A stretch of DNA of 44,115 bases, taken from Candidatus Hydrogenedentota bacterium (GTDB taxonomy: Bacteria; Hydrogenedentota; Hydrogenedentia; Hydrogenedentales; SLHB01). The notes under the pieces are model-generated. The model did no database searches. It worked only from the letters and a program-made list of their open reading frames with translations, and was not told the DNA's origin. Every line of letters starts with the position of its first letter. Position 1 is the stretch's first letter. The stretch is from contig JADLCA010000395.1 of the NCBI GenBank assembly GCA_020847495.1, forward strand, positions 1-44,115, given 5' to 3'. The translations under genes and the position numbers were made by a program. Below are positions 23,907-28,266 of the stretch, one piece after another.

Positions 23907-24407
23907 AAGACAAACCCTCCGGATTGCCAATGGACACACTATACCCTATGAGCGCGCCTGCGTAGGGCGGGAATTGTTCCCGCCCTCTTATCCACCCATT
24001 GATTCAATGTAAGCCAATTGGGGAGGTGCGAGTACGCGATGCGCTTCCAGGAGCGCCGGCATCCCTGCCGGCTCTTGAACAAGCCGAAGACAGTACCCGC
24101 CCCCCCATGGAAGGCGGGAACTAATTCCGCCCTAACCCAAACGATCTGCTTCATTGGTCTGTCCCGGTCGAAGCCAATGCCTGCCAGGGATGCATGCCCT
24201 GGGCGGACTCCGCGCCGGGTGTGGTACGATACGGTGCGATGCGCGCGGAGGGAAGATCAGAACCCTATCGACGCCGGTCCGCGCTTCCTGTGGACGGGGA
24301 TAGGAGTGGATTGGCGATGGATCTTGAATCTCACCCCATGCGTTTGTCTGGGGTTGGCGTTCCTCGCCGTGTCATCGAAATAGTCGTTTCACGTTCAGGA
24401 GGGATGT
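23907..24407. other. Repeat-rich intergenic region between divergent esterase and ceramidase-like genes
   Basis: No gene seen in about 500 bases. It holds a TATAGT on the minus strand (23943-23938) that could be the -10 box of the esterase gene, with a poor -35, then the MITE-like element 23963-24134, and about 270 bases upstream of the ceramidase-like gene in which I find no consensus promoter. Short open frames here have no ribosome site or recognisable product. Confidence 0.5.
23963..24134. mobile_element. MITE-like palindromic element, TA-bounded, about 172 bp
   Basis: The left end TAGGGCGGGAATTGTTCCCG and the reverse complement of the right end, TAGGGCGGAATTAGTTCCCG, match over about 22 bases with a one-base shift, forming terminal inverted repeats. 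Each end is itself a hairpin (left arms AGGGCGGGAA/TTCCCGCCCT at 23964-23973 and 23977-23986). A third hairpin, GCCGGC-ATCCCT-GCCGGC, lies inside at 24055-24072. TA at both borders would fit the target duplication of IS630/Tc1-type elements. No transposase is encoded. Copy number in the genome is unknown. Confidence 0.45.
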
Positions 24408-25784
24408 ATGAGCAAGAATGTTGTTTCACGGCTGTGCGCGCTTTTCGCGGCTATGGCCGCCGCTAGCGGTGTTCCCATGGCACATGCGCTCGAGATGTCA
24501 AGCTTCTCCGCCGAAGTCACCGCACCCATTGGACATGCCATGATGGCCGGTGGTATCGCACCCGCGAAATCCGTTGTGGATCCCTTGTACGTGAATGGTC
24601 TCGTGCTGCTGGGCGCGGGCGACCCCGTCGTCATGGTGGCGATTGACTGGTGCGAGATTCGCAACGACGCGTATGACGCCTTCCGTGACGCGTTGGCGGA
24701 GGCCGCCGGCACCACGCGCGAGAAGGTTTTGCTCACCAGCGTCCATCAGCACGATACACCGGTTGCGGATTTCACAGCGCAACGCCTGCTCGATGAGCAC
24801 GGACTGCCCGAGGCCCTCTGCGAAGTTCCGTTCGTGAAGGACTGCATCGCACGCACGGCGCGCGCCTTGAAGGATTCCCTCGACGATGCGGTTCCGGTAA
24901 CGCACTATGGCATTGGCCAGGCCGCCGTGGAAGGCGTGGCCTCGAACCGGCGCGTGGTCGCCGCGGACGGAACCGTTTCCTTCCCCCGCAACAGCGCGAC
25001 GGGCGACCCGGCCATTCGCGAGGCGCCCATCGGCGAACATGATCCCATGCTCAAAACGCTCAGTTTTTGGAATGGCGACCAGGCGCTCGCGGCGCTCAAC
25101 TTCTATTCCGTGCATCCGATGAGCTACTACGGGAAGGGCGGCGTGTCCGCGGATTTCGTGGGGATGGCGCGCCGCAAACGGCAGGAAGACGATCCCGCGA
25201 TTCATCAATTCTACTTCACGGGATGCAGCGGAGACACCACAGCGGGCAAGTATAACGACGGTGCCATCGCGAACCGGCCCGTGCTCGCAGACCGCATCTA
25301 CCAGGCCATGGTCGCCGCGTGGAACGCCACGGAAAAGCATGAGGTAGGCGACGTGACGGTGCGTGTCGCGAAAATGACTCTCGAACCGAAGAGCACCGCG
25401 GGGTACACGGAAGAGGACATGAAAGCCACTTTGGCGGACGCCAACGCGAAGACCTTTACGCGCATTCTCGCGGCCATGGGATTGAGTTTCCTGATGCGGC
25501 TGGATCAGCCGATCGACGTGCCGGCCGTGGATTTCGGCAAGGCGCAGTTTCTGGTGATGCCCGCCGAGAGTTTCGTGGGGTATCAGCTCATGGCGCAGCA
25601 ACTGCGGCCCGACAGCTTCGTTGTGACGGCGGGATTCGGGGAGTGCGCGCCCGGTTATATACCCACCGCGCAGACATCCGCGGAAGGATTCAACGACGCG
25701 CACGACTGGTGCTGGGTCGCGCCGGGCGCCGAAGAACGCATGCGCGCCGCCATGGCGGAAGCGCTGGGCGCGCCGAAGCCATAG
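24408..25784 (+). CDS. Secreted neutral/alkaline ceramidase-like protein (N-terminal domain family)
   Basis: A 458-residue protein with a signal peptide (MSKNVVSRLCALFAAMAAASGVPMAHA). It matches the pattern of the neutral/alkaline non-lysosomal ceramidase N-terminal domain: AEVTAPIGHAMMAGG, DPLYVNGLVLLGAGDPVVMVAIDWCEI, LLTSVHQHDTP, LNFYSVHPMSYYG, and FTGCSGDTTAGKY. Many bacterial proteins of this group are much shorter than true ceramidase and lack its C-terminal immunoglobulin-like domain, as here, so ceramide hydrolysis is not assured. The family HxH-type metal site is partly visible in SVHQHDTP. AGGAGGG (24397-24403) lies 4 bases before the ATG. A hairpin with a T-rich tail follows the stop. 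Confidence 0.8.
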   Translation: MSKNVVSRLCALFAAMAAASGVPMAHALEMSSFSAEVTAPIGHAMMAGGIAPAKSVVDPLYVNGLVLLGAGDPVVMVAIDWCEIRNDAYDAFRDALAEAAGTTREKVLLTSVHQHDTPVADFTAQRLLDEHGLPEALCEVPFVKDCIARTARALKDSLDDAVPVTHYGIGQAAVEGVASNRRVVAADGTVSFPRNSATGDPAIREAPIGEHDPMLKTLSFWNGDQALAALNFYSVHPMSYYGKGGVSADFVGMARRKRQEDDPAIHQFYFTGCSGDTTAGKYNDGAIANRPVLADRIYQAMVAAWNATEKHEVGDVTVRVAKMTLEPKSTAGYTEEDMKATLADANAKTFTRILAAMGLSFLMRLDQPIDVPAVDFGKAQFLVMPAESFVGYQLMAQQLRPDSFVVTAGFGECAPGYIPTAQTSAEGFNDAHDWCWVAPGAEERMRAAMAEALGAPKP

Positions 25785-25823
25785 GGGACTGATTGCGGAG
25801 AGAAGAGCGGCGTGGACGCCCCC

Positions 25824-25870
25824 ACATGTCCGATCGGACCGATCCGACGGATCGGTCCGATCGGACATGT
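25824..25870. repeat. Perfect 47-bp palindrome
   Basis: A 23-base arm (25824-25846) is followed by one base (A, 25847) and its exact reverse complement (25848-25870). The arm is built from the unit CGATCGGACCGATCCG. The symmetry extends outwards through GGACGCC (25814-25820) and GGCGTCC (25874-25880) with two mismatches. It lies between convergent genes. There is no T-run directly after it. A related degenerate copy is at 28156-28193. Confidence 0.85.
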
Positions 25871-25897
25871 GCAGGCGTCCCGCCTGCTTCTTGTTCA
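25871..25897 (+). terminator. Candidate intrinsic terminator of the ceramidase-like gene
   Basis: GCAGGCG-TCC-CGCCTGC (25871-25887) is a perfect 7-bp stem followed by TTCTTGTTC. It lies 87 bases after the ceramidase-like stop and one base from the stop of the convergent SDR gene. The T-tract is imperfect, and the left arm also takes part in the outer symmetry of the 47-bp palindrome. Confidence 0.4.
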
Positions 25898-25898
25898 A

Positions 25899-26657
25899 TT
25901 ACATCGCGAGGAAGCCCCCGTCGACCACCATTTCCGCGCCGGTCATCCAACTCGATTCGTCCGAGGCCAGGAATAGCGCGGCATTGGCGATATCGCGCGC
26001 AGTGCCCAGCCGCCGGATTGGAATTTCCGCGGAGATGGCCTTGCGTTTGTCATCGTTCAAATACGGAGCTTGGAGCGGGGTGTCGATGAAACCGGGGTGA
26101 ATGATGTTGCAGCGAATCTGCTCCGGCGCAAACTGGATCGCCAGCGACTTGCACAGCGAAATCAGTGCGCCCTTCGCGCAGGTGTAGGAGTCCTGGGCGA
26201 GCGTGAAACCCGCGAGCGCCGAGATGGATCCCACGAGAATGACGCTGCCGCCGCCCGCCTTGCGCAACTCGGGAATGCCGTGCTTGGTCAAGAAGAACGG
26301 GCCCTTCAAGTTGATAGCCTGCACGATGTCCCAGTTCTCTTCCGTCGTTTCAATCACGGACTTGTCGCGGTCTTTCCACAACACGCCCGCGTTCGCATAA
26401 AGGATGTGCAACGCACCGAAGGCCTTCACGCCTTCCGAGATGGCTTTCTGGACGTCGGCTTCCTTGCTGACATCGCCCTGGACGAACAGCGCCTTGCCCC
26501 CCGCGGCCTCGACAAGACGGACGGTTTCCTTGCCCGCGTCTGCGTTCAAATCAAACACGATGACCTTCGCGCCTTCTCGTGCGAAGACCACCGACGCTTC
26601 GCGGCCCATGCCCAGGCCCGCGCCCGTGATGATGGCCACTTTGTCTTTCAGTCTCAT
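25899..26657 (-). CDS. Short-chain dehydrogenase/reductase (SDR)
   Basis: A 252-residue classical SDR. Cofactor loop TGAGLGMG (11-18), the acidic VIVFDLNADAG end of strand 2 (favouring NAD(H)), ANAG, and the catalytic Ser in VGSISALAG with Y-T-C-A-K as YxxxK. C-terminal PGFIDTPL and SSWMTGAEMVVDGGF are standard. The ATG at 26657 has GGAGAA 8 bases upstream and begins exactly at the fold, so it is preferred to an ATG 19 codons earlier. It is 57 bases downstream of the glutamine-synthetase-family gene on the same strand and probably in its operon. Substrate unknown; a role oxidising an alcohol or amine-derived product of the neighbour is only a guess. Confidence 0.88.
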   Translation of the reverse strand: MRLKDKVAIITGAGLGMGREASVVFAREGAKVIVFDLNADAGKETVRLVEAAGGKALFVQGDVSKEADVQKAISEGVKAFGALHILYANAGVLWKDRDKSVIETTEENWDIVQAINLKGPFFLTKHGIPELRKAGGGSVILVGSISALAGFTLAQDSYTCAKGALISLCKSLAIQFAPEQIRCNIIHPGFIDTPLQAPYLNDDKRKAISAEIPIRRLGTARDIANAALFLASDESSWMTGAEMVVDGGFLAM

Positions 26658-28058: not shown

Positions 28059-28155
28059 TTCCACATCCTCCGCTTGCCCGGCCAAGGCTCCCCAAAATTC
28101 CGCTGAGTATCTCATAGAAAAGGCAAAACACGCAAAGAATCCTCAGCTTTTCCCA

Positions 28156-28193
28156 ATCGGACGGGTCGGACCGATAAGTCGGATCCGTCCGAT
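28156..28193. repeat. Degenerate relative of the 47-bp palindrome
   Basis: Outer arms ATCGGACGG (28156-28164) and CCGTCCGAT (28185-28193) are perfect complements. The interior, GTCGGACCGATAAGTCGGAT, carries the same GGACCGAT/ATCCG vocabulary as the palindrome at 25824-25870 but is imperfect. It lies between divergent genes. Confidence 0.55.
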
Positions 28194-28266
28194 GCTCCTT
28201 CTTGTACTGTATAGTTGAGCGAGCGCACTTATGGGAACCGAGATTACACAAACGGGGGAATAGAGT

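What the first reader, a model, noticed from the sequence alone, without database searches (positions are those of the whole stretch)
25824..25870. Perfect 47-bp palindrome between convergent genes
A 23-base exact inverted repeat with a one-base centre, extended outwards to about 33 bases per arm with two mismatches, is far beyond chance. It is built from the unit CGATCGGACCGATCCG. It lacks a T-run, so it is not a standard terminator; it could be a dispersed repeat, protein-binding site or RNA stem.
Basis: seen in the sequence. Interest (0 to 1): 0.5.

Follow-up and report, generated by a model that had tools for sequence, protein, structure and literature searches.

The report
Dispersed hairpin repeat built from nine-mers
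The perfect palindrome is real and is one copy of a scattered family of hairpin-forming repeats, made of a self-complementary nine-letter unit, that sits mostly just after genes in some environmental bacteria; it behaves like known extragenic palindromes but its tandem nine-letter build is unusual.

Summary
Confirmed: window 25823-25871 is a perfect 49-bp palindrome (24-nt arms, one centre base), extending to 33-nt arms with two mismatches. Its core, 25829-25864, is four copies of a self-complementary 9-mer, WCSGATCSG. It is not unique. The genome (phylum Hydrogenedentota) has 99/102 near-matches against 3/1 for the reversed control. A two-unit pattern occurs in 24 of 68 genomes of the phylum, control zero in all, and a three-unit pattern in many other phyla. 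Outside the array the arms are REP-like hairpins; the right one is terminator-like with a T-rich tail. In two congeneric genomes the elements are mostly intergenic, and in co-directional spacers 28 of 31 lie nearer the upstream stop codon. In one congener the orthologous site holds a different inverted repeat, in another only a small hairpin. No RAYT transposase, Dam-type methylase or mirror covariation explains them. Best reading: a REP-like dispersed element, probably an RNA hairpin at the ends of both convergent transcripts. It lacks the tags and transposase link of known REPs: a new variant of a known kind. Interest is moderate.

The parts
25823..25871 (.). perfect palindrome, 24-nt arms, centre base 25847
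   Evidence: inverted-repeat search
25829..25864 (.). tandem array of four self-complementary 9-mers (WCSGATCSG)
   Evidence: sequence
25814..25880 (.). extended inverted repeat, 33-nt arms, 94% complementary
25809..25820 (-). left outer arm: small REP-like hairpin GGCGT-GG-ACGCC, followed on the - strand by a pyrimidine-rich stretch
   Evidence: sequence; fold
25871..25897 (+). right outer arm: terminator-like hairpin GCAGGCG-TCC-CGCCTGC and T-rich tail TTCTTGTTCA
   Evidence: 1 found in 25700-26000, 0.1 expected
24408..25784 (+). left convergent gene, 458 aa, no Pfam match
   Evidence: my gene caller starts it at 24453
25899..26657 (-). right convergent gene, short-chain dehydrogenase
   Evidence: PF13561, E 4e-63
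28152..28196 (.). second, degenerate array of the same 9-mer, in a divergent spacer
   Evidence: (I8)

Best explanation
It is one copy of a dispersed, REP-like extragenic hairpin element. The core is a short tandem array of a self-complementary 9-mer, so that an array can fold back on itself; here it does so perfectly and is enclosed by REP-like outer arms. Most likely it is transcribed from both convergent genes, and the long stem with its outward-facing terminator-like arm ends or protects the 3' ends of both mRNAs. The family multiplies and is exchanged within intergenic slots downstream of genes. SHOWN: the palindrome, the array, genome-wide dispersal, patchy occurrence, position next to stop codons, and different content of the orthologous slot in congeners. 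INFERRED: transcription, termination or protection of RNA, and active mobility. NOT KNOWN: the enzyme or process that spreads the units. The confidence is for the RNA 3'-end role; that it is a dispersed REP-like repeat I hold at about 0.9.
For: Dispersal: 99/102 near-matches against control 3/1 in the own genome; 24 of 68 genomes of the phylum, control 0. Position: 17 of 18 co-directional elements of G001 and 11 of 13 of the own genome are nearer the upstream stop (28 of 31, p=5e-6), while nine other inverted-repeat families of the same G001 sample pool to 32:24 (Fisher p=0.004 for G001). 18 of 61 intergenic elements of both genomes are convergent against 78 of 535 spacers (p=0.003). Sense strand more stable in 22 of 31 (p=0.03). 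Terminator-like right arm. REP-like arms near 7 of 37 (G001) and 11 of 35 (own) arrays against 5.8%. Outside the genus, co-directional elements split 23:8. At 3 of 8 aligned orthologous sites the array is replaced by another inverted repeat in G001.
Against: No mirror covariation: contiguous arrays are no more mirror-complementary than random assemblies of units. No T-run after the arrays (T 0.26 in the first 10 nt). Spacers with arrays have as many canonical terminators (8 of 32) as spacers without listed elements (58 of 359), so arrays do not replace them. Convergent enrichment in the unbiased G001 sample alone is not significant (9 of 34, p=0.08). 12 of 61 elements are in divergent spacers, close to expectation. 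The strand-stability result is one of eight tests. No transcript data.
Confidence: 0.5

Rival explanations
1. Selfish or neutral repeat: the arrays arise by slippage and template switching or by an unknown mobile element and are merely tolerated downstream of genes; the perfect palindrome is a recent fold-back copy without function.
For: Patchy numbers within genera (89 against 0 in G048/G054; 65 against 0 in G034/G026); no covariation; in G048 the array is a one-directional part of a longer conserved repeat (13 copies); unit open in all six frames and arrays in frame inside genes of other phyla.
Against: The 3'-end preference is not shared by nine other inverted-repeat families in the same sample, so plain tolerance does not explain it, although targeting could.
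Confidence: 0.33
2. RAYT-mobilised REPIN: the palindrome is a REP doublet moved by one of the genome's Y1 transposases.
For: Y1 transposases in 54 of 68 genomes, 12 in this one; one is flanked on both sides by its own REPIN (L255); raw correlation of array and Y1 numbers rho 0.39.
Against: No strict array beside any of the 20 RAYT genes examined (9 of 12 in G000, 8 of 10 in G001, 3 elsewhere; partial hits with 3 mismatches in L259, L261 and L262, the last about 0.5 kb away). Correlation vanishes with genome size removed (rho 0.08, p=0.5). G048 has 89 pattern matches and a single weak Y1 match.
Confidence: 0.07
3. DNA-level binding array, for example for a GATC methylase, a nucleoid protein or a segregation factor.
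For: Each unit is a palindrome with GATC at 9-bp spacing; GATC is frequent in the window (239 against 155 expected from base composition).
Against: 4 of 13 genomes with at least 10 pattern matches have no PF02086 match (G048, G033, G066, G056). Position at 3' ends rather than at promoters does not suggest regulation of initiation.
Confidence: 0.1

Closest known systems
Repetitive extragenic palindromes (REPs), GTAG- and CGTC-tagged superfamilies (PMC3733652, abstract and passages read)
   Same: Dispersed, intergenic, hairpin-forming; between unidirectional and convergent genes, close to 3' ends; some copies inside genes; composite inverted dimers.
   Different: No terminal GTAG or CGTC tag; core is a tandem array of 9-mers rather than one 5-13 bp stem.
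REPINs with RAYT transposases (PMC3116915, abstract and passages read)
   Same: Some copies are two inverted halves with a spacer of about 50-120 nt; outer arms are REP-like.
   Different: No RAYT beside the arrays; spacer often absent; many copies are single arrays.
Rickettsia palindromic elements (RPE; search listing and mention in PMC3733652; details recalled)
   Same: Palindromic repeats that can lie in frame inside genes (here in other phyla).
   Different: In the window's genus almost all copies are intergenic; the sequence is a 9-mer array.
Intrinsic (hairpin plus T-run) terminator
   Same: GC-rich hairpin after a stop codon; the right outer arm and its T-rich tail meet a consensus scan.
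   Different: The array core has no T-run and is symmetrical and much longer.

Membership tests
GTAG/CGTC REP superfamilies | unpaired GTAG or CGTC at one end of the stem | tested here: not met
   No GTAG in 25814-25880; on the - strand CGTC occurs in the middle of the array and in the GGCGTCC of the arm, not as an unpaired end (sequence)
GTAG/CGTC REP superfamilies | dispersed, mostly intergenic, next to 3' ends of genes | tested here: met
REPIN/RAYT system | repeat lies beside a RAYT gene | tested here: not met
   20 RAYT genes examined in 19 stretches
REPIN/RAYT system | two inverted REPs with a spacer | tested here: inconclusive
   met in copies such as L026, L031, L035, L040, L042; not in the window's copy
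Rickettsia palindromic elements (in-frame) | in-frame insertion in coding genes | tested here: inconclusive
   in-frame arrays in L097, L145, L148 lie in variable loops of known folds; array-free close orthologues not compared; not so for the window's copy
Intrinsic terminator | GC-rich hairpin followed at once by a T-run | tested here: inconclusive
   not met by the core, met by the right outer arm on the + strand
Intrinsic terminator | transcripts end there | not testable with these tools
   no RNA data held
Rfam RNA families | match to a described family | tested here: not met
   0 matches in the window at gathering thresholds

The most novel reading that the evidence does not exclude
A widespread class, not found described in the library searched, of dispersed palindromic DNA made of tandem, self-complementary 9-mers that are open in all six reading frames. 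It occurs patchily in Hydrogenedentota, Planctomycetota, Lentisphaerae, Verrucomicrobia, Myxococcota, Acidobacteria and others, spreads without a RAYT, settles at 3' ends of genes as RNA hairpins and, in some taxa, in frame inside conserved genes.
Probability: 0.3. Interest if true: 0.6.

Novelty: new variant of a known kind. Interest (0 to 1): 0.4.

Why it matters
Extragenic palindromes are usually tied to a tag sequence and often to a transposase. A class that does without both, yet reaches many phyla and prefers the 3' ends of genes, would point to another way of spreading (replication fold-back, or an unknown enzyme) and to a common RNA 3'-end device in poorly studied bacteria. The exchange of unrelated inverted repeats in the same convergent slot between sister species is a testable case of mobile hairpins replacing each other.

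Tried and rejected
RAYT link: the correlation over 68 genomes disappears with genome size, and 19 stretches with 20 RAYT genes show no strict array beside them. Dam-type methylation: rejected as a requirement. Mirror covariation: tested twice, negative. A third design stopped with an error after one group (11 of 36 G000 arrays had an inverted repeat; 9 tested, within-element 0.87 against cross 0.66) and was dropped as circular, because the finder selects complementary arms. Array as substitute for canonical terminators: no deficit of terminators. Empty-site analysis in a second genus (G048 against G054): no flank matched in the 200 kb of G054 held, and no more could be fetched. Rfam: no match. 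Literature: no paper in the library holds any of five strings of the repeat or its encoded SDR peptide; the listings showed nothing on such repeats. Figures are not held, so a consensus shown only in a figure would be missed.

Limits: gene calls are from my own simple caller; starts are uncertain. The G000 elements were found through similarity to the window's palindrome and are not an unbiased sample; the G001 sample is (100 stretches chosen without regard to arrays, 6 of them all N, 16,471 bases). One search used 64 of the 119 loci plus 23 loci from the genomes, three of which (L066-L068) are from the window's genus; searches used 80 of the 119. The comparison families were named by me and some may be related to each other.

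Full report
WHAT IS THERE. The finding is confirmed. The window carries a perfect palindrome of 24-nt arms around one centre base (25823-25871), with 33-nt arms at 94% from 25814 to 25880. Twenty shuffles of the window gave longest perfect arms of 8-13 nt. The middle, 25829-25864, reads as four units in strict 9-bp register, each WCSGATCSG and thus self-complementary. It lies between two convergent genes, an ORF without Pfam match (24408-25784, +) and a short-chain dehydrogenase (25899-26657, -). The predicted fold of the spacer is a single very long hairpin (-81 kcal/mol for 127 nt). A second, degenerate array lies at 28152-28196 in a divergent spacer.

OUTER ARMS. Beyond the array the arms are themselves small REP-like hairpins: GGCGT-GG-ACGCC on the left, GCAGGCG-TCC-CGCCTGC on the right. 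The right one is followed by TTCTTGTTCA and is the only terminator-like site found in 25700-26000 (0.1 expected). So the statement that there is no T-run is true of the palindrome but not of the composite. REP-like arms lie within 90 bp of 7 of 37 arrays in G001 and 11 of 35 in the window's genome, against 5.8% of random intergenic positions in G001; the second set was found with queries made from this palindrome, one of which included the arms, so it may be biased.

FAMILY. In the window's own genome (6.9 Mb, 800 contigs, 81% complete) a 15-nt piece with up to two mismatches occurs 99/102 times (forward/reverse) against 3/1 for the pattern read backwards; a search with the whole palindrome gave 77 matches counted on both strands. 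From the loci held I count 35 distinct array elements. A two-unit pattern is found in 20 of 60 genomes of the relatives search and 24 of all 68 genomes of the phylum search (the own genome is counted in both), the control being zero in each; numbers vary sharply within genera (89 against 0; 65 against 0). The phylum is Hydrogenedentota: a locus of G014, in the window's family, shares its sequence with a record titled Candidatus Hydrogenedentota (L070 and L113). Some of these (for example in Streptomyces genes, and arrays of over 20 units) may be unrelated coding or satellite repeats.

POSITION. I took 100 stretches (1.60 Mb, 16 kb of it N) of the congener G001 without regard to arrays. Of 37 elements, 18 are in co-directional, 9 in convergent and 7 in divergent spacers, and 3 in called genes, although 84% of the sequence is genic. 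In co-directional spacers 17 of 18 are nearer the upstream gene's stop (median 48 nt) than the next gene's start. In the window's genome it is 11 of 13 (besides 9 convergent, 5 divergent, 4 in called genes, 4 at contig edges). Together 28 of 31 (p=5e-6). Another family, CACAGGCG..., behaves alike (with its variant 27 of 31), whereas nine other inverted-repeat families in the same sample pool to 32:24. Convergent enrichment is significant only when the two genomes are pooled (18 of 61, p=0.003; G001 alone p=0.08). In loci of other genomes, 31 co-directional elements split 23:8, with rough gene calls and three loci from the genus included. Published REPs are described in the same terms: mostly between unidirectional and convergent ORFs, close to 3' ends (PMC3733652, passages read).

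RNA OR DNA. In co-directional copies the sense strand folds more stably in 22 of 31 (p=0.03; the only one of eight families below 0.05, not corrected). Against an RNA-stem rule, arrays are not more mirror-complementary than random assemblies of their units, and at some positions less so, no T-run follows, and canonical terminators are as frequent in spacers with arrays (8 of 32) as in spacers without listed elements (58 of 359). The window's copy, with its perfect symmetry, is thus exceptional within the family.

TURNOVER. At the orthologous convergent spacer, G001 (92% identical neighbour protein) has a different inverted-repeat element (CACAGGCG type), and G002 (76%) has a short gap with a small hairpin next to a run of A. 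Of eight orthologous sites aligned between the window's genome and G001, five keep the array (one shortened) and three, the window's included, hold another inverted repeat instead. Two further site groups with flank matches on both sides (L009 and L251 at 4633) were not aligned.

WHAT SPREADS IT. Y1 transposases are common (54 of 68 genomes), and one in this genome is flanked on both sides by its own REPIN (L255), but none of 20 RAYT genes examined has a strict array beside it, and array numbers do not follow Y1 numbers once genome size is removed. Dam-type methylases are missing in 4 of 13 genomes with at least 10 matches. In G048 (another family) the array is a one-directional part of a longer conserved repeat (13 copies aligned), so the 9-mer array seems to live in different larger elements. 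The unit is open in all six frames (0 of 384 frames with a stop), and in other phyla arrays lie in frame in an NRPS (three modules), a ClpB-like and an aminotransferase gene, in variable loops; this is suggestive, not proof, of insertion.

VERDICT. A REP-like dispersed hairpin element, probably working at the 3' ends of transcripts. It fails the tag test for the known REP superfamilies and the RAYT test for REPINs, so I do not file it as a member; it works like them. The literature searches did not show this repeat described.

Noticed in passing
window 23962-24134: An inverted pair of GTAGGGCGGGAATTGTTCCCGCCCTC-type repeats about 120 nt apart; the left one carries the GTAG tag of a known REP superfamily, so it looks like an ordinary GTAG REPIN. 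Similar pairs recur in G001.
   Followed up: partly
L255 444-612 and 1353-1521 (G000 contig C322): Two nearly identical inverted-repeat pairs (GTACTGCC...) flank a Y1 transposase gene, the classic RAYT/REPIN arrangement.
   Followed up: partly
G001 stretches, e.g. L282 14617-14780, L227 11946-12094: CACAGGCGAGGGCGCCTGTGCCACACG inverted pairs with spacers of about 95 nt, strongly convergent- and 3'-biased (17 of 41 intergenic copies convergent) and T-rich just outside: they look like mobile bidirectional terminators.
   Followed up: partly
G001 stretches, e.g. L229 14946-15103, L235 18515-18623, L244 15015-15097, L284 2514-2576: Other inverted repeats whose arms are tandem arrays of 8-10 bp units (ATGGGAAGT, CGCGAAGA, ATTCGCGTTC): arms built of short tandem units are not confined to the GATC family.
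   Followed up: no
G048 loci L265, L347-L356: The 9-mer array sits inside an oriented repeat with conserved flanks on both sides (left AAGAGACTTGAAGGGATCAG..GTCTCCGGGGA, right GGATGTGGGAGGGGCG) and variable unit number.
   Followed up: partly
L097 94-138, 3435-3470, 6636-6680: Arrays of the same unit lie in frame at the same loop of three NRPS adenylation domains of an Acidobacteria MAG.
   Followed up: partly
window 1-44115: GATC is frequent in the window as a whole: 239 against 155 expected from base composition.
   Followed up: no
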